Below are positions 6,059 through 32,283 of a stretch of 56,537 nt of DNA, piece after piece. Every line of letters starts with the position of its first letter. Position 1 is the first letter of the stretch. The stretch lies in the NCBI GenBank assembly GCA_003820645.1, contig RPOR01000009.1:1-56537 (forward strand), given 5' to 3'. Below the pieces are notes generated by a model, which searched no databases, was not told where the DNA came from, and saw nothing but the letters and a program-made list of their open reading frames with translations. The position numbers were made by a program, and so were the translations under genes. This DNA comes from Betaproteobacteria bacterium. Lineage in GTDB: Bacteria; Pseudomonadota; Gammaproteobacteria; Burkholderiales; SG8-41.

Positions 6059-6750
6059 GACGATACTCCTTGTCTGGCATTGATCCCGCGGATGATGCGT
6101 ATGGGTTGCGGCTGACCGGGCCGGGCCTGTCCTTGCGACGAGCAGCCGTCAAACACGGGGGGTTCGGCCCAGGTATCGTCCAGCGGCGGTTCAACTGCGA
6201 GCTTGACCGGCCGCGCCTGCTCTCCCGCCAGTTCGAGCAGCGCGCCGAGGACGCTGGCGTACGGGGATGCACGTTCCTGCAACGCATTGAACAAGGCATT
6301 GAATATGTGCGCCATCTCGCCGAGGAAAGCGCGCGCCTCGCCTGGCGGCTGCGTCGACACGAACTCCAGTACCGCCGGCAGATAGTCGGGCAACTCGCCC
6401 GGCGCCAGATGCAAACCCGCTTTTTCGTAGGTCTGCGCCAGATCGATCATGGCCGGGCCACGATCGCGCGAATCACCGTGCACATGCTCGAACAGGTGCA
6501 GCGAAGTGGCACGGCCGCGATCGAACAGTTCCACATATCTCGCTTCCGTATCCAGTGCATCGGCACTTGCGAGTGCGGCAATCAGTGCCTCCAGTTCGAT
6601 CAGCCGGCCTGCCGACAGCGCAGCCTCACGGCCCAGTAATTCACGCATCTCCGGCAGGTAACCGCGCATTTCCGCATCGGGATAGGTCAGCAGCGCTGCC
6701 AGCACACGCAGGCTGCCGGGTGAAGACACGAGTTTTGAGAATCCCAGCAT
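6055..6750 (-). CDS. narJ: nitrate reductase molybdenum cofactor assembly chaperone
   Basis: A 231-residue soluble chaperone needed for cofactor insertion into NarG and for membrane attachment of NarGH. The start LGFSKLVSSP, the TYPDAEMRGYLPEM segment and FEHVHGDSRDRGPAMIDL are characteristic of NarJ. The ATG at 6750 lies two bases after the narH stop and has a strong GGAGG overlapping the narH 3' end. A longer frame upstream is inside narH. It overlaps narI by 4 bp. Confidence 0.95.
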   Translation of the reverse strand: MLGFSKLVSSPGSLRVLAALLTYPDAEMRGYLPEMRELLGREAALSAGRLIELEALIAALASADALDTEARYVELFDRGRATSLHLFEHVHGDSRDRGPAMIDLAQTYEKAGLHLAPGELPDYLPAVLEFVSTQPPGEARAFLGEMAHIFNALFNALQERASPYASVLGALLELAGEQARPVKLAVEPPLDDTWAEPPVFDGCSSQGQARPGQPQPIRIIRGINARQGVSS

Positions 6751-18122: not shown

Positions 18123-20624
18123 TTATCGCTGCTGCACGGCGGCTGTGCCGGCAACCGCCGGACGCAGCAGCCGCAGCGCGTTCGCCACCACCAGCAGCGA
18201 ACTGGCCGACATGCCGATCGCGGCAACCAGCGGCGTCACCAGGCCCGCCATCGCCAGGGGCAACGCCACCGCGTTGTAGACCACTGCCCAGGCAAGGTTC
18301 TGGCGGATCACGCGCAGCGTGCGCCGCGACGCCCGCACGGTTTCAGCCAGCGTATCCAGCCGGTCCGCCATCAGGATGATGTCGGCGCTGATCTGCGCCA
18401 GCTCGGTTCCACCGCCCAGCGCAATCGACACCTGCGCCTGCGCCAGTACCGGCGCGTCGTTGACGCCATCGCCGACCATTGCCACGATGGCGCCCTGCGC
18501 CTGCAGCTCTCTGACCCAGGACAGCTTGTCGGCAGGTGTCGCGCCGCCACGATATTCAGCGATGCCGAGTTCAGCCGCGGTGTGCGCGGCGCGCTGCGGA
18601 CGATCGCCCGAGAGCAGCGCAAGCTGCAGACCGTCGGCGGCAAGCGCCCGGATCATCGCCGGGGCATCATGGCGCACCACGTCGTCGAGCATGAACAAGG
18701 CGATCCAGCCGCGTTCATCGCCCAGCGCCACCATGCTCACCGCATCCGCAATGCAGTCGAGTTCCGGCGGCAATGCCTGGCGATGCAGTTCGGCGACGAA
18801 TGGCGGTTTGCCGATCCGCAGCAATCGGCCACTGACCACCCCTTCGACGCCCTGCCCGGCGACCGTGCGCACACCGCTCGCGACCGGATGCACGCCCTGT
18901 GCCGCAGCCACCAGTGCGCGCCCGACGGGATGCTCGGACCAGGATTCAAGGGCTGCGGCATGCGCTAAGCTCTGCGCGCGCGTGTCAACCGACAGCAGCT
19001 TCACACCGGCGAGCACCATATGCCCGCTGGTCAGGGTTCCGGTCTTGTCAAAGACGAAATGGGTTGCCCGCGCCAGCGTTTCCAGGGCCGTACCCCGCGT
19101 CACCAGGACGCCGGCACGGTAAGCGGCACCGGTGGCCGCCGTCAGCGCCGCCGGCGTCGCCAGTGACAAAGCACAGGGACAGGTCACCACCAGCATGGCC
19201 ACCGCGACCCATAGCGCCCGCGCCGGTTCGATCTGCCACCACACGGCAAAAGTGATCGCGGTGAGCAGCAGCAGAATGGCGACAAACCACTGGGCGACGC
19301 GATCAGCCGCAAGTGCGATGCGCGGCTTCTCCGATTGCGCGCGATCCATCAGCCGCACAATTCCCGCAAGTACCGTATCTTCACCGACCCGCCTCACGCG
19401 CATGGTGATCACACCATCGAGGTTGACAGCACCCCCGGTCAGCAGGTCGCCCGGACCCTTGGCAACGGGATGCGACTCCCCGGTGAGCAGTGATTCGTCT
19501 GCCGTGCTGACCCCGTCCACCACGACGCCATCGGCAGGTATCGCACCACCCGGGCGCACGCGCACCAGGTCATCCGGTTGCAGCGATGCGACTGCGACCC
19601 GCTCCGTCGCGCCAGCGCCGTCTTTCATCAACCGCTCTGCGGTAGCCGGCACCAGGCGGACCAGCTGCTCCTGCGTCTGCACCGCCCTGGCGCGCCCCGC
19701 CATCTCGAGAAAACGTGCCGCCAGCAGCAGGAACACGAACATCGACACCGAATCGAAATACACCTCGCCGGCGGCATTCCAGGTGGCACCGACGCTGGCC
19801 GTAAATGCGATCACGATACCCAGCGCCACCGGCACATCCATGCCGACGCGCCGGCTGCGCAGATCGCGCCAGGCACCGGTATAGAACGGCACGGCCGACC
19901 ACAACGCCACCGGCAAGGTCAGTACCAGGCTGGCAATACGCATCAACTGTTCGATATCGGGCGTCATCGCACCGCCGGCGATATACACCGGGATCGCGTA
20001 CATCATCACCTGCATCATGCTGAAGCCGGCGATGAACAAGCGCCACAACAGCACGCTGCGCTCGCGGCGCAGGCGTTCCTCGGCACGGCCGCTGTCATAC
20101 GGGTGTGCGTTATAGCCGAGATCCGCAACGGCGCGCAGGATCGTGCTCAACGCAGTGACCTGCGTATCCCAGCGGATCCGGGCGCGCCGCGTCGCGTAGT
20201 TCAGCGCCACCGCCCGGACTCCGGGGAGGCGCGCCAGGCGTTGTTCGATCAGCCACACGCAGGCGGCACAGGTCACGCCGTCGATCAGCAGCGACGCCTC
20301 TTTTTCATGCACAGCCGCCGGTGCATCGCGCACGAAATTGCGCTGCACCTCGGGCATGTCATAGACGCCGAGTTCGGCCGGTACGCCGCCGCTGCTCCGC
20401 GCAGACGGAGCCGGCGCCGTACGGTTGCGGTAATAGGCACCCAGCCCGTTGTCGACGATGGTCTGTGCGACAGCCTGGCAGCCGCGGCAGCAGGTGTCGT
20501 GTTCGATGCCGTCCAGCGTGACGGGAAACACTGCCGCATCCAGCGGCAGACCGCAATGAAAACACCCCGCGGCGGTATCCTTCGCGGGGTGCCTGGGCCC
20601 TGAGACCGGCGTTATCGCCGTCAT
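18123..20624 (-). CDS. ccoI: copper-translocating P-type ATPase CcoI/FixI
   Basis: An 833-residue CopA2-type ATPase that exports copper for cbb3 oxidase assembly. N-terminal CFHCGLP and CCRGCQAV cysteines, then a heavy-metal domain with GVTCAACVWLIEQ (about 110-125), eight helices with CPC (VTCPCALSLATP), phosphorylation site DKTGTLTSG and hinge GDGVNDAP. The extra N-terminal cysteine segment distinguishes CcoI from ordinary CopA. It is followed by ccoS after 88 bp and preceded by ompW after 16 bp, so it may share the FNR-controlled ompW promoter. Confidence 0.96.
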   Translation of the reverse strand: MTAITPVSGPRHPAKDTAAGCFHCGLPLDAAVFPVTLDGIEHDTCCRGCQAVAQTIVDNGLGAYYRNRTAPAPSARSSGGVPAELGVYDMPEVQRNFVRDAPAAVHEKEASLLIDGVTCAACVWLIEQRLARLPGVRAVALNYATRRARIRWDTQVTALSTILRAVADLGYNAHPYDSGRAEERLRRERSVLLWRLFIAGFSMMQVMMYAIPVYIAGGAMTPDIEQLMRIASLVLTLPVALWSAVPFYTGAWRDLRSRRVGMDVPVALGIVIAFTASVGATWNAAGEVYFDSVSMFVFLLLAARFLEMAGRARAVQTQEQLVRLVPATAERLMKDGAGATERVAVASLQPDDLVRVRPGGAIPADGVVVDGVSTADESLLTGESHPVAKGPGDLLTGGAVNLDGVITMRVRRVGEDTVLAGIVRLMDRAQSEKPRIALAADRVAQWFVAILLLLTAITFAVWWQIEPARALWVAVAMLVVTCPCALSLATPAALTAATGAAYRAGVLVTRGTALETLARATHFVFDKTGTLTSGHMVLAGVKLLSVDTRAQSLAHAAALESWSEHPVGRALVAAAQGVHPVASGVRTVAGQGVEGVVSGRLLRIGKPPFVAELHRQALPPELDCIADAVSMVALGDERGWIALFMLDDVVRHDAPAMIRALAADGLQLALLSGDRPQRAAHTAAELGIAEYRGGATPADKLSWVRELQAQGAIVAMVGDGVNDAPVLAQAQVSIALGGGTELAQISADIILMADRLDTLAETVRASRRTLRVIRQNLAWAVVYNAVALPLAMAGLVTPLVAAIGMSASSLLVVANALRLLRPAVAGTAAVQQR

Positions 20625-20640: not shown

Positions 20641-21237
20641 TCAGAATTTCATCCCCAATCCGAGGCCCACTATAATCGGGTTGATCTTGAAATTTGCCAC
20701 GGTGGCGCCCGTTGCCGCCAGCTTGACGTCAGTGTCAATCCAGATTTTCTTGATGTCAATGTTGACGAAGAACGTCTTGTTGATCGGGAAATCCGCGCCG
20801 ATCTGCAGCGCACCACCCCAGCTGCTGTTGTCCACTGTCGCCGCACCGCCCAGCAGGTTGATGTCGTAGAACTTCGTGTAGTTGATACCCGCGCCGACAT
20901 ACGGCCGGAACGAAGCGCTGTCCGGAGCAAAGTGGTACTGCAGCGTCAGTGTCGGCGGCAGCAGGGATACATCGCCGATCGGCGCACCGGCCGAGGTGAT
21001 TTCATGCTGCTTGGTCGCCAGGATCAGTTCCATTGCCAGGTTGCCGGTCAGAAAATAGCTGAAGTCCAGTTCCAGCGTAGTCTCCGTGCTCGCATCCAGA
21101 CTCAGCGCCGATGAACTCGCATCCGGACTGATGTTGATGACGCGTGCGCGTCCGAGCCAGTCTCCCTGTGCTGCACTTGCGATGCTGCTTGCCAGCCCGA
21201 TTGCCAACGCCACCGCTACCCATAACCGCCGTTTCAT
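20641..21237 (-). CDS. ompW: OmpW-family outer membrane protein
   Basis: A 198-residue beta-barrel precursor. The signal peptide ends around residue 22 (IASAAQG). OmpW hallmarks are PTLTLQYHFAPD, FRPYVGAGINYT and a C-terminal aromatic Phe (GLGMKF), recognised by the Bam complex. OmpW forms a small eight-stranded barrel with a hydrophobic channel and is induced under low oxygen in several proteobacteria. A class II FNR site stands upstream. It is the first gene of the long minus-strand run. Confidence 0.93.
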   Translation of the reverse strand: MKRRLWVAVALAIGLASSIASAAQGDWLGRARVINISPDASSSALSLDASTETTLELDFSYFLTGNLAMELILATKQHEITSAGAPIGDVSLLPPTLTLQYHFAPDSASFRPYVGAGINYTKFYDINLLGGAATVDNSSWGGALQIGADFPINKTFFVNIDIKKIWIDTDVKLAATGATVANFKINPIIVGLGLGMKF

Positions 21238-21263: not shown

Positions 21264-21312
21264 CCAGGCGATGCTAGGACAGCAACCAGCGACGGGATTT
21301 GACCCATATCAA
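21264..21312 (-). promoter_or_regulatory. FNR-type promoter of ompW
   Basis: TTGACCCATATCAA at 21299-21312 matches the FNR/ANR consensus TTGAT-N4-ATCAA at 9 of 10 positions. On the minus strand a TAGCAT -10 element lies at 21271-21276, predicting a start near 21264. The FNR box centre is then 41.5 bp upstream, the classic class II activation distance. Leader to the ompW ATG is about 27 bases. The box also lies 32 bp before the aat ATG on the other strand and might affect that gene. Confidence 0.75.
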
Positions 21313-21343
21313 ATACCGTTCATGCAATCAGGGGCGGTTTAGA

Positions 21344-22051
21344 ATGACCGGCATGATTCCCTGGCTGGAAAACGGCGACCCTTTCCCCCCGGTCGAGCGT
21401 GCCCTGGACAAACCCGGCGGCCTGCTGGCAGCAGGCACTGACTTGTCACCGGCACGGCTGCTCACGGCTTACCGTAACGGCATCTTCCCCTGGTACAGCG
21501 CCGGGCAGCCGGTGCTGTGGTGGAGCCCCGACCCGCGGATGGTGCTGTTCCCTGCCGAATTCCGCATGCCGCGCTCGCTCGCCAAGCGGCTGCGCCGGCG
21601 CGATTACGAAATCCGCGTCGATACTGCTTTCGAAACCGTGATGCGGGCGTGCGCCGCGCCGCGTGATGACGCCGCTGGCACCTGGATCACGCCGGAGATG
21701 ATTGCCGCCTACTGTGAATTGCATCGCCTCGGCCATGCGCACTCGGTCGAAACCTGGATCGCCGGCGAGCTTGCCGGCGGACTCTACGGCGTCGCGCTGG
21801 GCCGGATGTTCTACGGCGAGTCGATGTTCACCCGGGTGCCGGATGCCTCGAAAATCGCACTGGCTCACCTGGTGCGCCAGCTGGAGCGCCGAGAGTTCGG
21901 CATGATCGACTGCCAGATGAACACCGCGCACCTCGCACGCTTCGGTGCGCGGGAGCTGCCGCGCACCGCGTTTTCGCGGCGTCTGGCGGAATTGGTAAAC
22001 TACCCCACGTCCGCCGATGTCTGGCGCTTTGACAACGACCTGATGACTTGA
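21344..22051 (+). CDS. aat: leucyl/phenylalanyl-tRNA-protein transferase
   Basis: A 235-residue cytoplasmic enzyme that adds Leu or Phe from aminoacyl-tRNA to proteins with N-terminal Arg or Lys, marking them for ClpS/ClpAP. Family motifs: [76 protein letters not shown] and [12 protein letters not shown] 21344 is taken; ATG 21353 (MIPWLE) is an equally common start in the family. The next gene, bpt, begins 10 bp after the stop. Confidence 0.96.
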
Positions 22052-22061
22052 GCCCTTAGCG

Positions 22062-22787
22062 GTGACCAACCTCTCCGAATTTCCGCTGTCAGTGCTGCAG
22101 TTCTACGCCACTGCGCCGTATCCGTGCAGCTACCTGCCGGAGCGCATGGCCCGTTCGCAGGTCGCCACGCCCAGCCATCTGATTGACAGCCCCATCTACA
22201 GCGAACTGGTCCGCGCGGGATTCCGCCGCAGCGGCGCGTTCACCTACCGCCCGCACTGCGACCACTGCCGCGCCTGCGTCCCGGTGCGCGTGGTAGCCGA
22301 AGATTTCCGGCCGAACCGCACCCAGCGCCGTACCGCACAACGCCACGCCGCACTGGAATCGCAGATACTGGAACTCAAATACCACCCTGAACACTATGCG
22401 CTGTACCTGCGCTACCAGGCGATGCGCCACGCCGGGGGCGGTATGGACCAGGACAGCCGTGAACAGTACCGGCACTTCCTGCTGCAAAGTAATGTCGACT
22501 CCCGGCTGGTCGAATTCCGCGAAGACGGCGTGCTGCGCATGGTCAGCATCCTCGACCAGTTGCAGGACGGGCTGTCGTCGGTATATACATTCTTCGATCC
22601 CGAAATATCGGGCGCCAGCTTTGGCACTTACAACATCCTGTGGCAGATAAAACTCTGCCGCCAGCTTGACCTGCCGTATCTCTATCTGGGCTACTGGATC
22701 GCGCAGAGCAGGAAAATGGCCTACAAGATCCAGTTCCAGCCGATGGAAGGCCTGCGCAACGGCCGCTGGCAGCCGCTTGCGGGCTGA
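22062..22787 (+). CDS. bpt: aspartate/glutamate leucyltransferase
   Basis: A 241-residue enzyme that attaches Leu to N-terminal Asp or Glu, the second branch of the bacterial N-end rule. Characteristic segments are [13 protein letters not shown], the cysteine-rich [24 protein letters not shown], and [17 protein letters not shown] near the end. The start is GTG 22062. aat and bpt form a pair here. The response regulator gene follows after 14 bp and may be in the same transcript. Confidence 0.95.
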
Positions 22788-22801
22788 AGGCCCGCCTTGC
22801 C

Positions 22802-23482
22802 ATGCGCATCCTGATCATCGAAGACGACGCGACCATCGCAGCGAACCTCTACGATTTCCTCGAAGCGCAGGGACACCACGTCGATGCCGCCGGCGACGGC
22901 ATTACCGGACTGCATCTGGCGGTGACGCAGGCATTTGACGCCATCGTGCTCGATGTCGGGCTGCCCGGGATGAGCGGTCTGACACTGGTGCGCAAGCTGC
23001 GCGACGAGGCGCACGTGGACACGCCGGTTCTGATGCTGACCGCGCGCGACACGCTGGATGACAAGCTCGAGGGCTTCGCACGCGGCGCCGATGATTATCT
23101 GGTCAAGCCGTTTTCGCTGAAGGAGGTCGAGGCCCGGCTGACCGCGATGTACAAGCGCGGCAGCGGACGCGTCACCACGCGCCTGCTGCAGGCCGGCACC
23201 CTGGTACTGGACCCGAAAACCATGACCGTACGCTTCGCCGGCAATGAAGTGAAGTTGCCGCCCAAGTGCCTGCGCATCCTGGAGTTGCTGCTGCGTGAAC
23301 CGGGGCGTGTCATCAGCCGCGACGAAATCGAGCGCCTGGTCTGGGGCGAAGTGCAGGAAACCAGCGATACGCTGCGCAGCCATCTGCATACGCTGCGCCG
23401 CGCATTGACGGCGGCCGGCGGCTACGATCCCGTGGAAACGCTGCACGGCGTCGGTTACCGCGTGCGGACCGCCGACGCATGA
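22802..23482 (+). CDS. OmpR/QseB-type response regulator
   Basis: A 226-residue regulator. The receiver domain has DD at 8-9, phospho-Asp51 in IVLDVGLPGMSG, Thr in MLTARD and Lys in LVKPF. The C-terminal winged helix (about 130-223) includes ISRDEIERLVWG and RSHLHTLRRAL. It is followed by its kinase with a 4-bp overlap. The 11-bp repeats at 24758-24799, in front of the next operon, are the natural candidate target. Signal unknown; the closest overall type is QseB/TctD. Confidence 0.9.
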   Translation: MRILIIEDDATIAANLYDFLEAQGHHVDAAGDGITGLHLAVTQAFDAIVLDVGLPGMSGLTLVRKLRDEAHVDTPVLMLTARDTLDDKLEGFARGADDYLVKPFSLKEVEARLTAMYKRGSGRVTTRLLQAGTLVLDPKTMTVRFAGNEVKLPPKCLRILELLLREPGRVISRDEIERLVWGEVQETSDTLRSHLHTLRRALTAAGGYDPVETLHGVGYRVRTADA

Positions 23483-24741
23483 AAACGCCGGACCTTCGGG
23501 TACGGGTTGCCGCAGCGGTCGCAATTACCTGCATCGCCGTTGTCACCGCGCTTGCACTGACGTTGTATACCGCCTCCGAAGATCTCGAGGAATCACTGGT
23601 CGACCAGATCGTCGGCGAGGAAATGACCTATCTCGTCCGGCATCATCTTGACAACCCGCACATCCTGGTCCGGGAGCCGGGTCCCAATCTGCAGTATTAC
23701 GTCGTGCGCAACGATGCCGACATCGCACGCCTGCCCACATCGCTGCGCGCATTGCCGGTCGGCCACCACGAAATCGGCACCGGCATTGACGAACAACATG
23801 TTGCAATACGTGAGGTCAACGGCACGCGATTCATCGTTGCCTATGATGCCGGCCCGCATGAACTGCGCGAGCAGCAGTTCAAACGCCTGCTGCTGTTCGC
23901 GCTGGCCACCGTGACCGTCATCGCCGCAGCGCTCGGCTACTGGATTGCCGGCCTGATCACCCGCCAGATCACCGACCTCTCCGCGCGGGTCGCGACGCTT
24001 GACCCCGGAATGCGTCGAGCCCCGCTGGCGCGGCAGGGGCAGGACGCGGAAGTGTCAGCACTGGCCCGCGCATTCGACCAGTATGAAACGCGAATCCGTG
24101 AACTCATCGCGAGGGAACAGGAGTTCACCGGCAATGCGAGCCACGAATTGCGAACCCCCCTGACCGCGATCCGCACCAGTTGCGAACTGCTGGAAGCAGA
24201 GCCCGGGTTGCCGGACAAGGTGAGGGCGCGTATCAGCGGAATCGCCACTGCCGCACAACGCATGACCGGCCAGATCGAAACCCTGCTGTACCTTGCCCGG
24301 GCACAGGTGGCAGGCACCAAGGAAGCAGTGCCCATCGCGGAATGCGTAAAGGATGCAGTACAGCCTCTGCTTCAGGAAATTGCCCATAAGCAGATCACCT
24401 TCGCCAGCACCATTCCCGGGGATGCCATACTGCTGGTGAACCGGCAGGCTCTCGATATCGTCATTGCCAATCTGCTGCGCAACGCAGTGATGTATACCGA
24501 ACGCGGCCACATCCGGGTCAGCCTGGATGGCGACTGGCTGACGGTTGCCGACACCGGCATCGGCATTCCGGCCGACCAGTTGCCGCACATTTTCGGGCGA
24601 TTCCAGCGGGGCGGCGATCAGGGCGAAGGTTTTGGACTCGGCCTCGCCATCGTCAAGCGGATCTGCGACCACCACGGCTGGCGCATCGAAGCACAGAGCA
24701 TCCCGTCCCAGGGCTCCACGTTCCGCCTGAAACTGTCGTGA
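23479..24741 (+). CDS. sensor histidine kinase
   Basis: A 420-residue inner-membrane kinase. Helix 1 lies at about 8-30 and helix 2 at 135-160, enclosing a periplasmic sensor of about 105 residues. A HAMP-like linker follows, then the HisKA box with His222 in GNASHELRTPLTAIR, the N box (IVIANLLRNAVMYTERG), G1 (VADTGIGIP), and G2 (GEGFGLGLAIVKRI). ATGA overlap with the regulator gene shows they are a pair. It stands directly before the hemolysin-family operon, implying control of that operon. The sensor domain has no recognised ligand motif. Confidence 0.9.
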   Translation: MKTPDLRVRVAAAVAITCIAVVTALALTLYTASEDLEESLVDQIVGEEMTYLVRHHLDNPHILVREPGPNLQYYVVRNDADIARLPTSLRALPVGHHEIGTGIDEQHVAIREVNGTRFIVAYDAGPHELREQQFKRLLLFALATVTVIAAALGYWIAGLITRQITDLSARVATLDPGMRRAPLARQGQDAEVSALARAFDQYETRIRELIAREQEFTGNASHELRTPLTAIRTSCELLEAEPGLPDKVRARISGIATAAQRMTGQIETLLYLARAQVAGTKEAVPIAECVKDAVQPLLQEIAHKQITFASTIPGDAILLVNRQALDIVIANLLRNAVMYTERGHIRVSLDGDWLTVADTGIGIPADQLPHIFGRFQRGGDQGEGFGLGLAIVKRICDHHGWRIEAQSIPSQGSTFRLKLS

Positions 24742-24757
24742 CCGGCCCGGCCGGGTG

Positions 24758-24815
24758 TTCCTCACAGATTCTTCACGGCCAGCACACAATTTCCTGACAC
24801 GGGCGTCCCTATCCT
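24758..24815 (+). promoter_or_regulatory. 11-bp-phased direct repeats and promoter of the hemolysin-family operon
   Basis: TTCCTCACAGA (24758), TTCTTCACGGC (24769) and TTCCTGACACG (24791) are spaced by exactly 11 and 22 bp, with a degenerate unit at 24780. This phasing is typical of OmpR/PhoB-family operators. The last repeat takes the place of a -35 element, and TATCCT at 24810-24815 is a plausible -10, predicting a start near 24822. It would be activated by the response regulator encoded at 22802. The site starts 16 bp after the kinase stop. Confidence 0.55.
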
Positions 24816-24929
24816 GCAGGCATGCGAGAAATTGCCGCGCGCCGCCTGCTGCCTGCCTACCGGATCGACCGGACACCGGGGTGGACCGCCGCTGCAATCC
24901 GCAACGGTTCACTTTGCAAAGGTCAGAAC

Positions 24930-25559
24930 ATGCTCGCAGAAACTGCAGCCCTTTCCCCGCTTTACGGCGACAACAAGGGCGCATCCCGTCCCCGCTGGCA
25001 TTTCGGTCCGGCGAGCGGCAAAGCGCGCGGCACCGTCGAGCAATTCATCGCCGCCGGATTCCTGAAGGCTTACCAGGCGCGCCTCACCGAGTTCATGCCG
25101 GAACTGATGGGGCTCTACCAGGACGCCGCGTTGGTCGCCGCCTGCGGCCTGCGCGGGGCAGCGACCGGACCACTGTTTCTGGAGCAATATCTCGATCATT
25201 CCGCCGACGTTGCACTGAGCCGCCTGATCGGCGCACCCGAGGATCGCAGCAGGATCATCGAAGTCGGCAACCTGTCGGTGTCGCGGCCCGGTTACGCGCG
25301 CCATTTTGTCGCCTGGCTCACGTCGCATCTCCACAGTGCCGGAATGCACTGGGCGCTGTTCAGTGCCGTGCCCGCACTGCGCAACAATTTTCGGCGCCTT
25401 GGCATTCCGATGATCACGCTGGGGCCCGCCGACCCGGACCGTCTGGCCCGCCATGTCCGCGCCAGTTGGGGGACCTATTACGACCAGCAACCGCAAGTGA
25501 CTGCGGTGCACGTCGCAACCGCGTTCGAAACCCTGGGCCTCACCCGATGCCGGCAGTGA
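24930..25559 (+). CDS. thermostable hemolysin family protein (GNAT-related)
   Basis: A 209-residue protein of the T_hemolysin family, named for the Vibrio delta-hemolysin; the fold is related to GNAT acyltransferases. Matching segments are RIIEVGNLSVSRPGYARHF, ALFSAVPALRNNFRRLG and WGTYYDQQPQVTAVHV at the end. There is no signal peptide, which argues against a secreted toxin. An acyl-transfer role in the operon is my inference. ATG 24930 has AAAGG before it; an upstream ATG (24822) coincides with the predicted transcription start. It overlaps the next gene by 13 bp. Confidence 0.85.
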   Translation: MLAETAALSPLYGDNKGASRPRWHFGPASGKARGTVEQFIAAGFLKAYQARLTEFMPELMGLYQDAALVAACGLRGAATGPLFLEQYLDHSADVALSRLIGAPEDRSRIIEVGNLSVSRPGYARHFVAWLTSHLHSAGMHWALFSAVPALRNNFRRLGIPMITLGPADPDRLARHVRASWGTYYDQQPQVTAVHVATAFETLGLTRCRQ

Positions 25560-27058
25560 TAGCGGCGCTGGCCAGGCATGCCGCTGTGCAGCCGGCACGG
25601 TGCGCGATTGCTGACGGCCGGCAGTCCCTCGATTACGGCAGCGTGCATGCCATGGTCAGCGCCGCCGCAGCGCGATTACGCAGAACCGTCCGCGGCACCG
25701 TCGCGCTGGCGCTAGAAAACAGTCCGGCGTGGGTTCTTGGCGACCTTGCCGTGCTCGCCAGTGATCTGCCCTGCGTCCCGCTGCCCCCTTTCTTCACGCC
25801 GGCACAACAGGCACATGCTTTGCGCAATGCCGGCGCCGGCTGGCTGCTCACCGACCGCCCGGATTTCTACGACAGGCTGCTGCGGCAACAATCGATCCCT
25901 GCCGTGCATGTCGATGACATCGAACTCGGCGGTCGCACGATTGCACAGTTTTCCCTGGCCACTCCGCCGGTTCTGCTGCCGCAGGGTACCGCGAAAGTAA
26001 CCTATACCTCCGGCACCACCGGCAGCCCCAAAGGCGCCTGCGTGTCGGCTGCAGCGATGGACAACGTGGCGTACGCGCTTGCCAACGCCACGCAGATGAC
26101 AGCAGCCGACCGCCACGTCTGCCTGCTGCCGCTTGCCACGCTGCTCGAGAACATCGGCGGCATTTATGCACCGCTGCTGTCCGGCGCGTGCGTAGTGCCT
26201 GCAGCAGGACGCGAGGACACCGACGCCTCCACCATCGCCGGAAACTACGGGGAAGCGCTTGCCGGCATGCTTGAAGCTGCACGCGCCTCGACGGCCATCA
26301 TCATCCCCCAGATGCTGCAAGCGCTGGTCGCCGCCGTCGAGGCAGGCACGCCACGGCCGGCGGCATTGCGCTTCGCCGCCGTGGGCGGTGCCCGGGTCCC
26401 AGGATCGCTGCTGCGGCGCGCCGCGAGCGCCGGCCTGCCGGTTTTTGAAGGCTACGGGCTGTCCGAGTGCGCATCGGTGGTCACACTGAACACGCCCGGC
26501 GCCAACCGGCCCGGCAGCGCCGGACGACCGTTGCCGCATGTCGGCATTGCGATCGCGGAGGACGGCGAGATCCTGGTTCGCGGCGCCACCTTCCTCGGCT
26601 ATGCCGGCGATGCCGCCACCACGGGCGAACCCTGGCATACCGGCGATCTTGGCCATCTTGATGCGGAGGGCTTCCTGCACCTCACCGGTCGCAAAAAGGA
26701 CCTGTTCATCACCACTTTCGGACGCAACGTATCGCCGGACTGGATCGAAAGCGAACTTGCGCTGCAGCCGGCCATCACCCGGGCATGGGTCCACGGTGAG
26801 GCCCGGCCGTGGAACACGGCGGTCGTGGTCGCGCGCCCCGGGGCGACAGCGCAGGACGTCAGCACTGCGATCACGGCGGCGAACCGCAACCTGCCGGGTT
26901 ATGCCCAGGTACGACACTGGCTGCCTGCCGACGAACCGTTCAGCCTTGATAACGGCGAACTCACGGCCAACGGCCGCCTGCGGCGCAGCGTCATCGCCGC
27001 ACGCTACACACCCCGTATTGACCAGATCTACTTGGAGCATGCCTGTGAACTTTCATGA
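25547..27058 (+). CDS. AMP-dependent acyl ligase (ANL superfamily)
   Basis: A 503-residue adenylate-forming enzyme that would activate a carboxylic acid, probably a fatty acid, as acyl-AMP. Motifs: TYTSGTTGSPKG for ATP, YGLSECASVVTLN, and TGDLGHLDAEGFLHLTGRKKD with the hinge. At the A10 position the usual catalytic Lys seems replaced: the sequence reads ELTANGRLRR, with Arg where GK is expected. It could still ligate to a partner, or use another Lys. It is shorter than long-chain acyl-CoA ligases. It overlaps both neighbours. Substrate unknown. Confidence 0.88.
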   Translation: MPAVIAALARHAAVQPARCAIADGRQSLDYGSVHAMVSAAAARLRRTVRGTVALALENSPAWVLGDLAVLASDLPCVPLPPFFTPAQQAHALRNAGAGWLLTDRPDFYDRLLRQQSIPAVHVDDIELGGRTIAQFSLATPPVLLPQGTAKVTYTSGTTGSPKGACVSAAAMDNVAYALANATQMTAADRHVCLLPLATLLENIGGIYAPLLSGACVVPAAGREDTDASTIAGNYGEALAGMLEAARASTAIIIPQMLQALVAAVEAGTPRPAALRFAAVGGARVPGSLLRRAASAGLPVFEGYGLSECASVVTLNTPGANRPGSAGRPLPHVGIAIAEDGEILVRGATFLGYAGDAATTGEPWHTGDLGHLDAEGFLHLTGRKKDLFITTFGRNVSPDWIESELALQPAITRAWVHGEARPWNTAVVVARPGATAQDVSTAITAANRNLPGYAQVRHWLPADEPFSLDNGELTANGRLRRSVIAARYTPRIDQIYLEHACELS

Positions 27059-27731
27059 TCAGTTACTGGCGGCAACCGCCGCCGAACGTACCGCACTCCT
27101 TGCCATCCCGTTCATCCGGGACGGCGCAGCCGGCAAACTGCGACGCGAGGATTACGTGGCCTTTCTCGCCGAGGCCTACCATCACGTCAAGCACACGCTG
27201 CCGCTGCTGATGGCCTGTGGCGCACGCCTGCCGGAACGGCTGGAGTGGCTGCGCGCAGCGATGGGCACATACATACAGGAAGAAACCGGGCATCAGGAGT
27301 GGATACTCAACGACATCCGCGCCTGTGGCGGAGATGCCGAGGCCGTCCGCAACGGCCGGCCCGACCTGCCGGCGGAACTGCTGGTCGCCTATGCCTACGA
27401 CACGATTGCACGCAGCAATCCCGTGGCCTTCCTCGGCATGGTGCTGGTGCTGGAAGGCACCAGCACGGAGGTGGCGCTGCAGGCCGCCGCTGCGCTGCAA
27501 CGATCGCTGGCGCTGCCGCCGCAGGCGCTCACCTACCTCACCTCGCACGGCGCACTCGACCAGGAACACACCCGCTTTTACGCCACCCTCGTCAACCGCA
27601 TCGTCGATGCCGGTGACCGCGCCGCGCTGGTTCACGGCGCCAAGGTGTTCTACCGGCTCTATGGCGACGTGTTCCGCGGGCTCGACGCCGCGCGCAACCG
27701 CGACCTGGACCTGGCGAGGAAATGCGCATGA
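27045..27731 (+). CDS. TenA/heme-oxygenase-fold iron-dependent oxidase-like protein
   Basis: A helical protein of 228 residues in the TenA/heme-oxygenase-like superfamily, often labelled iron-containing redox enzyme. Possible metal ligands: EAYHHVKHTLP (Glu and His), EETGHQEW (ExxxH) and DQEHTRFY (DxxH). This is the pattern of heme-oxygenase-like diiron oxidases, a group that includes the alkene-forming UndA. The thiamin-salvage TenA cysteine was not seen. GTG 27045 is chosen because GGAG lies 7 bases before it; ATG 27039 is one base from GGAG. It overlaps the ligase gene. Inferred to oxidise the acyl product of the ligase. Confidence 0.8.
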   Translation: MNFHDQLLAATAAERTALLAIPFIRDGAAGKLRREDYVAFLAEAYHHVKHTLPLLMACGARLPERLEWLRAAMGTYIQEETGHQEWILNDIRACGGDAEAVRNGRPDLPAELLVAYAYDTIARSNPVAFLGMVLVLEGTSTEVALQAAAALQRSLALPPQALTYLTSHGALDQEHTRFYATLVNRIVDAGDRAALVHGAKVFYRLYGDVFRGLDAARNRDLDLARKCA

Positions 27732-28570
27732 ATCTCGAGGGATGCCGCACCCTGCTCACCGGCGCCGGCAGCGGCATCGGTCGCTGTCTGGCGCTCGCCC
27801 TCGGTGCGCGTGGCGCAAGGCTGGTATTGGTCGGACGCAACGCGACGCGCCTCACCGAGGTCGCCCGGGAAATCGTCCGCGCCGGCGGTTACGCCCTGGC
27901 AGTGGCGCACGACCTGAGTGCCCCCGCTGGTCATGACCAGTTGGTGCTGTCAGCGACGAACCGGCTGGGCGGCATCGATCTGCTGATCAACAATGCCGGT
28001 GTTGCAGGTTTCGGCGAGTTTGCCACGGAAGATCCGGCAGGCATCGACAACCTCATCAACACCAACATTACTGCGCCGCTGCTGCTGACGCGCGCCGTCC
28101 TGCCAGCCATGCTCGAATCCGGAACCGGCCGCATCGTCAATGTCGGTTCGATCCTGGGTTCCATCGGCTTTCCGCATTTTGCCGCGTACTCCGCCAGCAA
28201 ATTCGCGTTGCGGGGATTCTCTGAGGCGTTGCGTCGCGAACTGGCCGGTAGCGGCATCGGCGTCACTTACGTCGCGCCGCGCACCACCCGCACCACGCTC
28301 AATTCCGACACGCTCTACGAACTGTCTGCCGCCAGCGGCACCGCGGTTGACGACCCCGCGACCGTCGCCGCCATCATCGTCGAGGCCATCGCCGCGGACC
28401 GCGACGAGATTTATATCGGCTGGCCGGAGAAACTGGCCGTGCGGCTGAACGCCTTGCTGCCGCGCCTGATCAGCCTCGCCATCGGCAAGCAGGTTGCCGC
28501 GGCACGACAACTGCTGCGCACCACCGGACCGCGACCGGCGACAGCGCCAAGTATCGACAAATATGAATAA
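27728..28570 (+). CDS. short-chain dehydrogenase/reductase (SDR)
   Basis: A 280-residue classical SDR with TGAGSGIG (about 12-19) for NAD(P), NNAG in the second strand, a catalytic Ser in VNVGSILGSIG and the YSASK active site. It has a C-terminal extension with a hydrophobic and basic end, as in membrane-lipid-associated SDRs. ATG 27728 is 7 bases after GAGGA and overlaps the oxidase stop as ATGA; ATG 27722 is the alternative. Within the operon it would reduce or oxidise a keto or hydroxy lipid intermediate. Substrate unknown. Confidence 0.88.
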   Translation: MNLEGCRTLLTGAGSGIGRCLALALGARGARLVLVGRNATRLTEVAREIVRAGGYALAVAHDLSAPAGHDQLVLSATNRLGGIDLLINNAGVAGFGEFATEDPAGIDNLINTNITAPLLLTRAVLPAMLESGTGRIVNVGSILGSIGFPHFAAYSASKFALRGFSEALRRELAGSGIGVTYVAPRTTRTTLNSDTLYELSAASGTAVDDPATVAAIIVEAIAADRDEIYIGWPEKLAVRLNALLPRLISLAIGKQVAAARQLLRTTGPRPATAPSIDKYE

Positions 28571-30485
28571 AAACAAATACTTATATAAAACCGGAGACAG
28601 CCGCTACGGCTTGCTGGCGACGCTTGCAGGCTTCTACCTGGTGGTCTCCGGTCTGACGCGCCTGGCGCTGGCGGGTCAGGCATTGGCAGCACACCAGGCG
28701 CAATGGCTGGACCTGCCGCGCGTGCTGCTGCTCGGCCTCGGCTATGACCTGGTGACCTCGGTCTATCTGACGGCGCCGCTGGCCGTCTATCTGCTGCTGG
28801 TGCCGCAGCGCCTGTTTGCCACGCGCATGCATCGCGCACTGGTCTGGAGCGGCTTTGCCGCGCTTTGTTTCGGGCTGGTCTATCTCGCCGCAGTGGAATA
28901 TTTTTTCTTCGACGAGTTCAATGCCCGATTCAACTTCGTCGCGGTCGAATATCTGATCTATCCGCACGAGGTTTTCGTCAACATCTGGCAATCCTACCCG
29001 GTGGGCAAGGCACTCGCCGCCAGCGCCGCGATCGCCGCTTTCGTCATCTGGCGCACGCGCCATCGGGTCCGCAGCGTGCTGGCGACCGAGACGCGGTTCA
29101 GGCAACGGCTGCGCCCCGCGTTGCTGCTGATCGCGGCGCTGCTGCCGCTGAATTTCTGGATCGATGCAACATCCGCCCACACCGGGCAGAACCGCGTCGC
29201 CGATGAACTGGCGGGCAACGGCATCTATTCCTTCTTCAGCGCGGCAGCCAACAGCCGCCTCGATTATGACCGGTTCTATCTGACGTTGCCGGGTAACGAG
29301 GTGATCGCACGCACGCAGCGCCTGGTCATGCAGGACAACACGCAACTCATCGCAAACGCCGCGAGTCCGCTCGCACGCCACGTCACCCACACCGCACCAG
29401 CGAAGCGCCTGCATGTGATCGTGGTGCTCGAGGAGTCGCTGGGCGCGGAATTTGTCGGCGCCTATGGCGCAGCGCAGAGCTTTACACCGAACATCGATCG
29501 CATCGCCGCCAAAAGCGTGCTGTTCACCAACACCTACGCAACCGGCACCCGCACCGTACGCGGCATGGAAGCCGTCACCGCATCATTTCCGCCGGTACCC
29601 GCCGAATCGATCGTCAAACGCCCGCACAACGAGCACATGTTCAACTGGTCTACGGTGATGCACGAGCAGGGCTACAGCCCGACCTTCATCTACGGCGGCT
29701 ACGGCACATTCGACAACATGAACGCGTTCTTCGGCTCGAACGGCTACCGCGTGATCGACCGTACCGATTTCGACACGCCGAAATTCAGCAATATCTGGGG
29801 CGTCAGCGATGAGGATCTGTTCCGCAACGCGCTGCTTGAATTCGACCGCCAGCAGGAGCGCGGCGAACGCATCTTTTCGGTGATCATGACCACCTCCAAC
29901 CACAAGCCGTTCACCTTTCCAGAGGGCATCAACGGCGTAAAACCGCAGGGCGGCGGTCGCGAGGCCGGCGTGCGTTACGCCGACCACGCACTGGGCCGGT
30001 TCATCAATGACCTGGAAAAACGACCCTATTTCGAAGACACGATGCTGGTGATCGTCGCCGATCATGGCGCACGGGTTTACGGCCGCGAGGATATCCCGGT
30101 GCCGACATACGCAATACCGTTTCTCGTCTACAGCCCGCGGCACGTGGCACCGCGCACGGTCACCGCGCCGGTCAGCCAGATCGACGTTGCCCCCACCGTG
30201 CTCGGTCTTCTCAATTTCAGCTATGACAGCGCCTTCTTCGGACGTGATGCGCTGGCCGGCGGCGATTCGTACATCCCGCTCAACCACAACCGCGACATCG
30301 CGCTCTACCGCAACAACGCACTTAACCGGATCGGATTCCGCAAAAGCACCGGCACACTGCGCTATGACGCGACCACGCATCGCCAGCATACGGCAACCGA
30401 CGACCGCGACGGCCAGCACGACACGGCCAGCGTGTTTCAGCTCGCCCACACGCTGTACGCCGAACGCCGTTACCGTGTCCACTGA
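28563..30485 (+). CDS. LTA-synthase-like membrane sulfatase family protein
   Basis: A 640-residue protein with five N-terminal helices (to about 210) and an extracytoplasmic alkaline-phosphatase-fold domain. Metal and nucleophile motifs: VVLEESLGAEFVGAYG, the presumed nucleophilic Thr in YATGTRTVRGMEA, TTSNHKPFTF and VIVADHGARVYG. Family members move phosphoglycerol or phosphoethanolamine groups onto envelope polymers or lipids (LtaS, OpgB, EptA relatives). The first codons are very AT-rich (NKNKYLYK). It overlaps the SDR gene by 8 bp, so it belongs to the operon. The group transferred is unknown. Confidence 0.88.
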   Translation: MNKNKYLYKTGDSRYGLLATLAGFYLVVSGLTRLALAGQALAAHQAQWLDLPRVLLLGLGYDLVTSVYLTAPLAVYLLLVPQRLFATRMHRALVWSGFAALCFGLVYLAAVEYFFFDEFNARFNFVAVEYLIYPHEVFVNIWQSYPVGKALAASAAIAAFVIWRTRHRVRSVLATETRFRQRLRPALLLIAALLPLNFWIDATSAHTGQNRVADELAGNGIYSFFSAAANSRLDYDRFYLTLPGNEVIARTQRLVMQDNTQLIANAASPLARHVTHTAPAKRLHVIVVLEESLGAEFVGAYGAAQSFTPNIDRIAAKSVLFTNTYATGTRTVRGMEAVTASFPPVPAESIVKRPHNEHMFNWSTVMHEQGYSPTFIYGGYGTFDNMNAFFGSNGYRVIDRTDFDTPKFSNIWGVSDEDLFRNALLEFDRQQERGERIFSVIMTTSNHKPFTFPEGINGVKPQGGGREAGVRYADHALGRFINDLEKRPYFEDTMLVIVADHGARVYGREDIPVPTYAIPFLVYSPRHVAPRTVTAPVSQIDVAPTVLGLLNFSYDSAFFGRDALAGGDSYIPLNHNRDIALYRNNALNRIGFRKSTGTLRYDATTHRQHTATDDRDGQHDTASVFQLAHTLYAERRYRVH

Positions 30486-31185
30486 TCAGGCGCTGGTCCC
30501 GCGCCTTTGGCTGGGAGCACCGCTGGCACTGATGATTACCCTCGTGCTGCTGGAAGGCACGGACGTTGACCGCATGATCAGTCACTGGTTTTTTGACGCC
30601 GGCTCACAAACCTTCCCGCTGCGTCAGGCCTTTCTGCTCGACACGGTGCTGCATCACTGGGCCAAGTACGCGGTCATCCTCACCACCTGCGTCATTACGG
30701 CAGTATTCGCTTTTTCCTTTCTCGTCCCTGCCCTGCGTCCGCAGCGCCGGGGACTGTTGTTCCTCGCACTGGCAATGACGCTGGCACCGCTCGCGGTCAC
30801 CTCGCTCAAACAGTTCACCGACCGGCCCTGCCCGTGGGACCTGGCTGATTTCGGCGGCGCAGTGCCTTATACCCGCCTGTTCGAAGCCCGCGAGCAACCC
30901 CATGCCCGCGGACTGTGCTTCCCGGCGGGTCATGCCTCCACCGGCTTCGCGCTGCTGGCGTTCTTTTTTGTCGCCCATCGTGAACGCCATCACAAACTCG
31001 CGCGTACGGCATTGCTCGCCGGGACGGCAGCAGGTCTGGCGCTTGGCATCGGCCGTATCGCCCAAGGCGCGCATTTCATGTCGCACGTGCTGTGGTCGGG
31101 GCTGGTGTGCTGGCTGGTCATGGTTGGCCTCTACGCCATGACCTTTGCACCGTGGCCCCGAATCGGAATCGCAGCCGGCGAATAG
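30475..31185 (+). CDS. PAP2-family phosphatase
   Basis: A 236-residue membrane phosphatase with about six helices. The three PAP2 motifs are KQFTDRPCPWD, PAGHASTGFALLAF and GRIAQGAHFMSHVLWS (Arg and His; the family Asp is replaced by Trp-Ser). Related enzymes include LpxE/LpxF lipid A phosphatases and undecaprenyl-diphosphate phosphatases. GTG 30475 overlaps the sulfatase stop by 11 bp. It probably dephosphorylates a lipid on the periplasmic side, linked to the sulfatase-family transferase next door. Confidence 0.88.
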   Translation: MSTDQALVPRLWLGAPLALMITLVLLEGTDVDRMISHWFFDAGSQTFPLRQAFLLDTVLHHWAKYAVILTTCVITAVFAFSFLVPALRPQRRGLLFLALAMTLAPLAVTSLKQFTDRPCPWDLADFGGAVPYTRLFEAREQPHARGLCFPAGHASTGFALLAFFFVAHRERHHKLARTALLAGTAAGLALGIGRIAQGAHFMSHVLWSGLVCWLVMVGLYAMTFAPWPRIGIAAGE

Positions 31186-31187
31186 TC

Positions 31188-31204
31188 ATAACCTGTTGTT
31201 TTTA
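31188..31204 (+). repeat. 17-bp AT-rich repeat, copy 1 (upstream of pyrD)
   Basis: ATAACCTGTTGTTTTTA lies 2 bp after the PAP2 stop and about 50 bp before pyrD, at the head of an AT-rich block (to 31220). An identical 17-mer lies before tldD (46577-46593, minus strand). Both copies point toward the gene they precede. It could act as an UP element or a regulator site. Confidence 0.6.
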
Positions 31205-31257
31205 ATAATTAATATTATCTCTGCTGGCGGCGCGTGGCAGGCCGGTACAATACGGCC

Positions 31258-32283
31258 ATGTACACCCTGCTCCGCCCCCTGCTGTTCGCGCTGGACGCCG
31301 AGTCCGCGCACCACCTGACGCTGACATCGCTGCAACTCGCCGCGCGCACCGGGGTCGTCGGTGCCTGCGTGCCCCTCGCGGACGCCGCGCCGCGCCGGGT
31401 CATGGGTCTTGACTTCCCCAATCCGGTCGGTCTTGCCGCCGGCCTCGACAAAAACGGCGAGTACATCGATGCGCTGGCCGCCCTTGGCTTCGGCTTCCTG
31501 GAAATCGGCACGGTCACGCCACGCCCGCAGCCCGGCAATCCGCGACCGCGGATGTTCCGGTTGCCTGCAGCGCAAGCCGTGATCAACCGCATGGGTTTCA
31601 ACAACCTCGGCGTCGATGCGTTGATCGCCAACGTGCAGCGCGCACGATTTCGCGGGGTACTCGGCATCAACATCGGCAAGAATTTCGACACGCCGCTGGA
31701 ACGCGCAGCCGATGATTACGTCGCTTGCCTGCGCAAAGTCTATCTCCACGCAAGCTATGTCACGGTCAACATTTCCTCACCGAACACCAAGAACCTGCGC
31801 CAGCTGCAGCAGACCGATGAACTCGGTCAGTTGCTGGCGACGCTGCAAACCGAGCGCCAGCGGCTCGCCGACCGCCACGGCAGGCGTGTGCCGCTGGCCC
31901 TGAAAATCGCGCCTGACCTGGACCGGACCCAGGTCGCCGCGATTGCCGAGCTGCTGGTCACGCACAGCATCGATGCCGTGATTGCCACCAACACCACCAT
32001 CGCCCGGGAGGCTGTGGCACACCTGCGGCATGGCGCGGAAACGGGCGGCCTGAGCGGCGCACCGCTGACCCTGCAGGCACAAACGGTGGCCGCGCAACTC
32101 GCCGCCGCGCTTGCCGGTGCAGTACCGATAATCGGTGTTGGCGGCATCATGAGCGGCGCCGACGCGGCGGCACGCGTCGCCGCCGGCGCCAGCCTCGTGC
32201 AGTTGTATACCGGGCTCGTTTATGCCGGTCCCGCACTGGTCAGCGCCTGCATCAACAGCATCCGGGAGAACGCACCATGCTGA
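31258..32283 (+). CDS. pyrD: dihydroorotate dehydrogenase (quinone), class 2
   Basis: A 341-residue membrane-associated flavoenzyme of pyrimidine synthesis that oxidises dihydroorotate with quinone. Motifs: an N-terminal amphipathic extension ([16 protein letters not shown]), [38 protein letters not shown] with the catalytic Ser, and IGVGGIMSG. Length is typical (336-345). ATG 31258 is the second possible start; 31234 would add eight residues. It overlaps ald by 7 bp. Confidence 0.96.

What the first reader, a model, noticed from the sequence alone, without database searches (positions are those of the whole stretch)
22802..31185. Two-component system controlling a six-gene hemolysin-family/AMP-ligase/oxidase/SDR/transferase/phosphatase operon
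Genes at 24930-31185 overlap each other at every junction, which is strong evidence for one operon. Content: a GNAT-related thermostable-hemolysin protein, an AMP ligase, a heme-oxygenase-fold oxidase, an SDR, an LTA-synthase-like transferase and a PAP2 phosphatase. The first four look like acid activation, oxidation, reduction and acyl transfer; the last two act on envelope lipids in the periplasm. A dedicated kinase-regulator pair stands directly upstream. Inference: this builds and installs a modified acyl group on an envelope lipid or polymer in response to a signal. I know of no described product for this gene set.
Basis: partly seen in the sequence, partly recalled or inferred. Interest (0 to 1): 0.82.

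Follow-up and report, generated by a model that had tools for sequence, protein, structure and literature searches.

The report
Lipid-making gene cassette under envelope sensor
A widespread but uncharacterised four-gene enzyme set, built around a protein named a hemolysin but shaped like a bacterial signal-molecule synthase, sits inside an older sensor-controlled cell-envelope gene block.

Summary
The genes are real and overlap at all five junctions, but the "six-gene operon" is two modules.

Module 2, LTA-like transferase–PAP2, follows the kinase–regulator pair without the cassette in 7 of 8 same-family LTA loci. In this genus the site is empty or holds RR–HK, RR–HK–PAP2, RR–HK–cassette or, in the window only, everything.

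A predicted operator (24758-24801) precedes T_hemolysin. It is the window's best site even when learned only from LTA/PAP2 loci, and it precedes an unlinked relative cassette.

Best reading: an envelope regulator driving a cassette that makes an oxidised N-acyl amphiphile. Regulation is well supported; product chemistry is inferred, and ten paper searches found no product.

The parts
21299..22051 (+). aat-like gene (flank of the variable site)
   Evidence: ORF; conserved neighbour in same-genus and same-family loci; gene name recalled
22062..22787 (+). ate/bpt-like gene (flank)
   Evidence: match in 20 of 21 same-genus genomes; gene name recalled
22802..23482 (+). OmpR-family response regulator
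   Evidence: PF00072 + PF00486; no cut-off reached in the 25 NCBIfam models shown, nearest QseB/RppA/PhoB
23479..24741 (+). sensor histidine kinase with periplasmic loop
   Evidence: PF00512 + PF02518; matches at E<=1e-60 in 30 of 74 same-family genomes
24758..24801 (+). predicted response-regulator operator: four direct repeats spaced 11 bp (consensus about TTCNTCACANN), 20 nt before the T_hemolysin ATG
   Evidence: best site of the whole window, both strands, by leave-window-out matrix (37.1 vs next 9.0 bits) and by LTA/PAP2-only matrix (20.0 vs 10.2); binding not tested
24822..25559 (+). T_hemolysin (PF12261): AHL-synthase/FeeM-fold acyltransferase-like protein
25547..27058 (+). ANL-superfamily (AMP-forming) acyl ligase with Arg in place of the A10 Lys
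27045..27731 (+). heme-oxygenase-like diiron oxidase (HDO), candidate ligands E79/E80-H83-E137-H168-D172-H175 (numbering from GTG 27045)
27722..28570 (+). classical short-chain dehydrogenase (SDR)
   Evidence: PF00106; NF006565 294.8 bits over cut-off 238; catalytic S and YxxxK conserved
28563..30485 (+). LTA-synthase/phosphoglycerol-transferase-like membrane protein (separate module)
   Evidence: PF00884; follows RR-HK in sister genera
30475..31185 (+). PAP2 phosphatase, lipid-A-phosphatase-like (separate module)
   Evidence: PF01569; NF028538 99.9 bits, below cut-off 275
31234..32283 (+). pyrD-like gene (flank of the variable site)
   Evidence: conserved 3' neighbour of the site; gene name recalled

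Best explanation
Two modules share one operon under one two-component system. (1) SHOWN by comparison: RR-HK with LTA-PAP2 is the usual arrangement in sister genera, the four-gene cassette (T_hemolysin-ligase-HDO-SDR) is a separate unit, and in this genus the cassette stands behind the same TCS at aat-ate-pyrD, in the window ahead of LTA-PAP2. Insertion of the cassette is the simplest history; loss of parts from an older composite is not excluded. (2) STRONGLY SUGGESTED: the phosphorylated regulator binds 24758-24801 and switches on cassette and LTA-PAP2 together; a relative keeps the operator before a cassette 72 kb away from its TCS. (3) INFERRED: the ligase activates a carboxylic acid, probably fatty; T_hemolysin, with the fold of LasI/TofI and FeeM, transfers the acyl group to an amine as AHL and N-acyl-amino-acid synthases do; the HDO oxidises, and the SDR reduces, acid, amine or acyl amide. 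The product would be a small N-acyl amphiphile, which could explain why a family member without a signal peptide was scored as a 'hemolysin' with activity in supernatant. (4) INFERRED: LTA-like protein and PAP2 remodel envelope phospholipid or lipid A in parallel, in answer to the same signal, rather than using the cassette product.
Against: No product or substrate is known. Profile-profile comparison finds no homology of T_hem with FeeM (0.1%) or AHL synthases (2.4%), while FeeM against AHL synthases gives 91% in the same test. The E-x-S-R motif of AHL synthases (recalled) would read E-x-G-N here (register from a non-significant alignment). The ligase lacks the A10 lysine (Arg in 89 of 90), so it may not adenylate normally. 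Same-family L018 has T_hem-ligase-SDR without HDO and without the operator. The operator is weak in L045, absent in L046, and absent before T_hem in Stutzerimonas although this TCS type lies near the cassette there; L084 and L088 have a 21.6-bit site that is not before T_hem. Operator likeness within the genus is partly by descent; no binding was tested. Fungal-exudate workers read the set as beta-oxidation (PMC8304167). 22 of 40 T_hem loci have no RR or HK nearby.
Confidence: 0.5

Rival explanations
1. The cassette makes a diffusible signal: T_hem is a new LuxI-type synthase, the ligase supplies the acyl donor, HDO/SDR tailor it, and the neighbouring membrane kinase is the receptor.
For: AHL-synthase fold; RR in 58 and HK in 60 of 80 HDO loci, and both in 18 of 40 T_hem loci; two regulator types coupled to it; very strong co-induction including the RR.
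Against: The TCS exists without the cassette in 7 same-genus loci and in sister genera; 22 of 40 T_hem loci have no RR or HK nearby; no receptor binding known; no sequence-profile homology with AHL synthases.
Confidence: 0.13
2. The cassette makes a metal-binding small molecule (for example HDO N-oxygenates an amine that T_hem acylates) used in iron homeostasis.
Against: All six FTR1 cases in the 40 come from one family, f46; the window locus has no iron gene among the neighbours examined; heme oxygenases score as high as HrmI in the fold comparison (about 22), so that match does not tell N-oxygenation.
Confidence: 0.12
3. The set is catabolic (fatty acid or related acid degradation), as read in P. 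alcaligenes AVO110.
For: Ligase and SDR families fit; fadD (ligase) told to be needed in fungal exudate (PMC6344628 passage; PMC8304167 passage).
Against: No acyl-CoA dehydrogenase, hydratase or thiolase among the recurrent neighbours that I annotated (these families were not searched for by name); constant company of an acyltransferase-fold protein and an HDO; a TCS operator shared with envelope genes.
Confidence: 0.1
4. One reading: the cassette builds an acyl group that the LTA-like transferase and PAP2 install on an envelope lipid.
For: Overlapping genes in the window; LTA-PAP2 pair near the cassette also in Stutzerimonas kunmingensis (two loci) and one Methylotenera.
Against: LTA-PAP2 occurs without the cassette in sister genera and the cassette without LTA-PAP2 nearly always; G008 has the cassette and no LTA match at E 1e-20.
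Confidence: 0.08
5. T_hemolysin is a pore-forming protein toxin, as its family name says.
For: Haemolytic activity reported for the Vibrio member (as told in PMC4046660).
Against: Acyltransferase fold with a confident model; no signal peptide identified for the Vibrio and Serratia members in that passage; conserved set with three metabolic enzymes.
Confidence: 0.03

Closest known systems
LuxI/LasI-type acyl-homoserine-lactone synthases and FeeM N-acyl amino acid synthase
   Different: No sequence-profile match; E-x-G-N in place of E-x-S-R (the E-x-S-R motif is recalled); found with ligase, iron oxygenase and SDR; acyl donor and acceptor unknown
dth region of Vibrio cholerae (delta-thermostable hemolysin with DthC VCA1110)
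   Same: T_hemolysin beside an AMP-forming ligase (PMC12208996 passages)
   Different: Only the pair is mentioned in the passages seen; the region's sequence was not fetched here; the 2002 paper is not held
P. alcaligenes AVO110 A9179_RS08440-RS08460 cluster
   Same: Ligase, iron-containing redox enzyme, SDR, TPR, response regulator in order, all strongly induced (PMC8304167); P. alcaligenes RU38D (L127) carries T_hem, ligase, HDO, SDR, TPR, RR and HK
   Different: Authors read it as beta-oxidation; AVO110 sequence itself not compared here
Serratia ATCC 39006 or1352-5
   Same: T_hemolysin-like or1354 (184-fold in the rsmA mutant), ligase and a TauD-type dioxygenase (PMC4046660 passages)
   Different: TauD branch with a transporter; no HDO or SDR named in the passage
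HDO oxidases UndA, CADD, HrmI and Shewanella 3DDE
   Different: 12-23% identity; substrate unknown; fused to an acyl ligase in some relatives
PmrAB/QseBC-type envelope TCS
   Same: OmpR-family RR with a direct-repeat operator (likeness to PmrA/QseB boxes recalled); linked to LTA-like and PAP2 genes
   Different: QseB and PmrA cut-offs missed; signal unknown

Membership tests
PF12261 T_hemolysin | profile score over curated cut-off | tested here: met
   189.3 vs 27 bits
LuxI/FeeM acyltransferases | AHL-synthase/FeeM fold | tested here: met
LuxI/FeeM acyltransferases | sequence-level homology | tested here: not met
   hhalign probability 0.1% (FeeM, 13 rows) and 2.4% (AHL synthases, 5 rows), while FeeM against AHL synthases gives 91.4% (an earlier run with some rows in wrong frames gave 0.4, 0.1 and 41%)
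LuxI/FeeM acyltransferases | conserved E-x-S-R motif (recalled) | tested here: inconclusive
   Glu nearly invariant (E147), then Gly in 86 of 86 and Asn in 82 of 86; register from a non-significant alignment
LuxI/FeeM acyltransferases | N-acyltransfer activity | not testable with these tools
   needs enzyme assay
HDO (heme-oxygenase-like diiron oxidases) | heme-oxygenase fold | tested here: met
HDO (heme-oxygenase-like diiron oxidases) | six carboxylate/histidine metal ligands | tested here: met
   E79/E80, H83, E137, H168, D172, H175 invariant in 88 of 88; E137, H168, D172, H175 align with CADD's (which residues are ligands in CADD and UndA is recalled); metal binding itself not tested
ANL adenylate-forming enzymes | T-S-G-T/S-T loop, Y-G-L-S/T-E and G-D motifs | tested here: met
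ANL adenylate-forming enzymes | A10 catalytic lysine | tested here: not met
   Arg in 89 of 90 rows without a gap, Cys in 1, of 92 rows; Lys seen in the Acinetobacter ligase L014, left out of the count for its internal stop
Classical SDR | glycine-rich loop, Ser, YxxxK | tested here: met
   NF006565 over its cut-off
PmrA/QseB equivalogs | NCBIfam equivalog cut-off | tested here: not met
   QseB 170.9 vs 345, PmrA 154.7 vs 330
LtaS / phosphoglycerol transferase I equivalogs | NCBIfam equivalog cut-off | tested here: not met
   phosphoglycerol transferase I 62.6 vs 572, LtaS 44.5 vs 970; only the superfamily PF00884 is met
Lipid A phosphatase PAP2 (NF028538) | NCBIfam equivalog cut-off | tested here: not met
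   99.9 vs 275; PF01569 met

The most novel reading that the evidence does not exclude
'Thermostable hemolysins' across the phylum are the acyltransferases of an undescribed class of LuxI-fold metabolites: an activated acid is joined to an amine and tailored by a diiron (or alternatively an Fe/2-oxoglutarate) oxygenase and an SDR, giving a lipid that cells either sense through the kinase encoded next door or place in the envelope when an iron- or damage-sensing TCS fires. The classical heat-stable haemolysis would then be caused by this small molecule and not by a protein.
Probability: 0.3. Interest if true: 0.85.

Novelty: new variant of a known kind. Interest (0 to 1): 0.62.

Why it matters
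PF12261 proteins are annotated "thermostable hemolysin" in public records (for example the plasmids). If they are LuxI/FeeM-fold acyltransferases in a fixed biosynthetic set, that name misleads, and a metabolite encoded by Pseudomonas, Lysobacter, Microbulbifer, Mariprofundus and methylotroph genomes is still unknown. The aat–ate–pyrD site gives an unusually clear view of how one envelope TCS has different target genes in close relatives while keeping its operator, and it offers a regulatory handle for finding the product: lock the regulator on, then compare extracts.

Tried and rejected
Six-gene conservation: rejected. T_hem against FeeM and AHL-synthase profiles by hhalign: the first run had some rows in wrong frames; the mended run gives a working positive control and no homology for T_hem, so the fold is the only link. 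PDB sequence search with the T_hem profile: no match at E 1. T_hem in viral contigs: none confirmed. TPR partner elsewhere in the window's genome: only a weak partial match, E 3.5e-4. Rfam: nothing at gathering scores. Consensus sigma-70 promoters and terminators: fewer than in shuffles. LTA enrichment near the cassette: 7 of 80 HDO loci have an LTA-family gene, but four are Stutzerimonas or their kin, four are distant paralogues (28-30% identity), only L084, L088 and L110 have an LTA–PAP2 pair, and the T_hem-centred sample shows 1 weak of 40, so I treat this as weak; the genomes searched for LTA were mostly chosen because they had one near, so no rate can be taken from it. A second copy of the window-type RR in G679 (L294): no LTA or PAP2 found beside it. 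Operator negatives: L046 none; L045 only 4.1 bits near the expected place and 12.3 at an unrelated one; L018, L096, L097, L105 and L110 none before T_hem; five of 117 loci have a site of 15 bits or more elsewhere. The first operator scan looked only 150 nt past HK and missed L042, found later. Best RR match in the L110 genome is poor (106 bits) and on another contig. Kinase periplasmic loop: an acidic E-x-x-E-like stretch is common in the aligned orthologues by eye, not tested further.

Papers: PMC8304167, PMC6344628, PMC4046660, PMC12208996 and PMC13185094 were seen as passages from 'find' only; other papers only as listings; Fallarino 2002 is not held and is known here only through those passages. 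That no paper on the product was found rests on the ten searches; one term was read as 'themolysin' and was useless, and most subscription journals are not held.
Full report
OBSERVATION. The window holds, on one strand, RR–HK–T_hemolysin–ligase–HDO–SDR–LTA-like–PAP2 between aat/ate and pyrD. All frames are intact and all five junctions of the six genes overlap by 8-14 nt. The statement is confirmed.

IT IS TWO MODULES. I compared relatives. In same-genus G008 (L020) the order is aat–ate–RR–HK–T_hem–ligase–HDO–SDR–pyrD with no LTA–PAP2, and G008 has no LTA match at E 1e-20. In other genera of the family the order is RR–HK–LTA–PAP2 without the cassette: of the 8 same-family LTA loci fetched (L041-L046, L049, L051), 7 have RR–HK directly upstream, all but L051, and six of these have ate beside RR. 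I then read the aat–ate–pyrD site in the genus: of 21 genomes, 20 have ate. Their states: 8 empty; 5 RR–HK; 2 RR–HK–PAP2; 1 RR–HK–cassette; 2 RR–HK–cassette cut by a contig end; 1 (window) RR–HK–cassette–LTA–PAP2; 1 cut before the site. So the kinase–regulator pair is not dedicated to the cassette, and the six genes are a composite. Insertion of the cassette is the simplest history, but loss of parts from an older composite is not excluded. In the HDO tree the window groups with G008, G011 and G027 of its own family (100/98), so the cassette was not freshly brought from afar.

THE CASSETTE IS A REAL UNIT. Of 398 genomes of the phylum, 78 had PF12261, at 80 places. I fetched 40 of those places, one or more from each of the 30 genera with a hit other than the own genus and g116, whose only hit was below the cut-off. 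Ligase follows in 38 of 40, HDO in 37, SDR in 33, an exported TPR protein in 33; of the 37 with at least 3.5 kb downstream, 36, 35, 33 and 33. Starting from HDO in the named genome collection, the tool kept the best 80 of at least 541 relatives (a choice biased to close ones): ligase 80, T_hem 77, SDR 77, TPR 71, RR 58, HK 60; in the three without T_hem (L077, L101, L103) the contig begins inside the ligase. Ligase and HDO are one protein in Pseudoalteromonas and Novosphingobium, and lie in one 720-residue frame in L173. In two Streptomyces plasmids and one Acinetobacter plasmid a TauD-type iron oxygenase stands where HDO would be, and Serratia or1352-5 joins T_hem, ligase and TauD too (PMC4046660). 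This points to an iron-dependent oxidation tied to acid activation. Contrary cases: same-family L018 has T_hem, ligase and SDR with no HDO, L143 has T_hem and ligase only, and L161 has T_hem alone with room for the rest.

REGULATION. Between HK and the next gene, cassette, PAP2 and most LTA loci carry four direct repeats spaced 11 bp. A simple periodic-core score, chosen after seeing these sequences, is 4 of 4 in the four same-genus cassette loci including the window, 3 in both PAP2 loci, 3 in L041, L043 and L049, 2 in L044 and L045, 1 in L042 and L046, and 0-1 in the five loci where HK runs straight into pyrD; for scores of 3 and 4, at most 1 of 1000 shuffles reached the observed value. L042 has its site further out (23.1 bits) and L044 scores 25.2 by the matrix. 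A matrix built without the window (8 sites) puts its best hit of the whole window, both strands, at 24758 (37.1 bits, next 9.0); built from five LTA/PAP2 loci alone it still does (20.0, next 10.2). Outside the training set the motif stands before T_hem in L061 (21.9, next 6.9) and L085 (27.0; next 13.9, overlapping), whose TCS is of the same type, and in L019 of G027 (20.5, next 6.8), where the cassette lies 72 kb from the RR–HK–LTA–PAP2 locus. Scanning about 450 nt before T_hem in 117 loci finds it only in L061 and L085 (next 7.7 bits), so it is not a general feature of the cassette. Against a strict regulator-operator rule: Stutzerimonas loci have this TCS type near the cassette yet no such site before T_hem; L084 and L088 show a weak one (10.7) before LTA and a good one (21.6) at 6249 on the other strand. 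The regulator tree separates this TCS from the one usually found downstream of the cassette; it was built only from regulators near these loci. Of five genomes outside the family that carry the cassette and were searched, the genome-wide best match to the window RR is the copy near the cassette in four (two Stutzerimonas, L061, L085) and not in the fifth (L110). In Stutzerimonas kunmingensis that copy also sits beside an LTA–PAP2 pair.

EXPERIMENTAL HINTS IN PRINT. P. alcaligenes AVO110 raises ligase, HDO, SDR, TPR and RR transcripts 389-, 373-, 318-, 107- and 38-fold in fungal-exudate medium; the authors read the set as beta-oxidation and report the ligase gene (fadD) as needed there (PMC8304167 passages; PMC6344628 passage). 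In V. cholerae the ligase is DthC (VCA1110), next to the delta-thermostable hemolysin, and its transposon mutant formed C15:0 but not C17:0 from fed C13:0, as did two other ligase mutants (PMC12208996 passages). The Vibrio protein is told to be haemolytic in lysate and supernatant without an identifiable signal peptide (PMC4046660 passage), which suits a small-molecule product at least as well as a protein toxin.

MECHANISM. Shown: two modules, one TCS, one conserved predicted operator, a predicted acyltransferase fold, a conserved candidate diiron site, oxygenase swap, ligase–oxygenase fusion. Inferred: acid activation, acyl transfer to an amine, oxidation, reduction; the order of the steps; an amphiphilic product; parallel envelope change by LTA–PAP2. 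I put 0.5 on the whole and about 0.9 on the modular part. Rivals are a sensed signal, a metallophore, catabolism, the single six-gene pathway, and a true protein hemolysin.

NOVELTY. Each enzyme belongs to a known kind, and the neighbour pair was noted in Vibrio. The conserved set, its LuxI/FeeM-type fold and its placement under an envelope TCS were not found described in the ten searches listed. I file it as a new variant of a known kind.

Noticed in passing
window 22051-31234 and L182-L197: The aat-ate-pyrD interval is a variable site in this genus: of 19 genomes readable there, 8 are empty, 5 hold the TCS only, 2 TCS plus PAP2, 4 the cassette (one of them the window, two cut by contig ends).
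   Followed up: yes
and L054-L133: 41 of the 78 PF12261-positive genomes in the phylum sample fall in a single unnamed family (f72), and named carriers include Mariprofundus, Gallionella, Sideroxydans and Ferrigenium, iron oxidisers as I recall; an iron link was not tested.
   Followed up: no
L134-L137, L142, L153, L181: A TCS-cupredoxin-FTR1 permease-unknown (c14) block sits on either side of the cassette in some relatives.
   Followed up: partly
L179 10986-14450 and L173 12371-15632: In Novosphingobium the cassette is followed by a methyltransferase, a sigma factor, a FecR-domain protein and a TonB receptor; the two frames after the L173 cassette look like FecR and TonB-receptor starts by eye only.
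   Followed up: no
L143 8183-14747: A T_hem-ligase pair without HDO is followed by two frames that look like PLP aminotransferases and one like an amidase (by eye); Streptomyces sp. Mg1 also has an annotated amidase just before T_hem.
   Followed up: no
ligase family (AMP alignment): The A10 catalytic lysine is Arg in 89 of 90 ligases of the cassette, an unexpected family-wide substitution.
   Followed up: partly
L018 8773-11871: A same-family relative has T_hem, ligase and SDR but no HDO and no operator.
   Followed up: partly
L084 and L088 6249-6292 (-): A good operator-like site (21.6 bits) lies downstream of the PAP2 match on the opposite strand in Stutzerimonas; what it would control was not worked out.
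   Followed up: no
window 18123-20624 (-) and 20641-21237 (-): A heavy-metal P-type ATPase-like gene and an OmpW-like outer membrane protein gene lie just upstream of the site (by eye from the translations).
   Followed up: no
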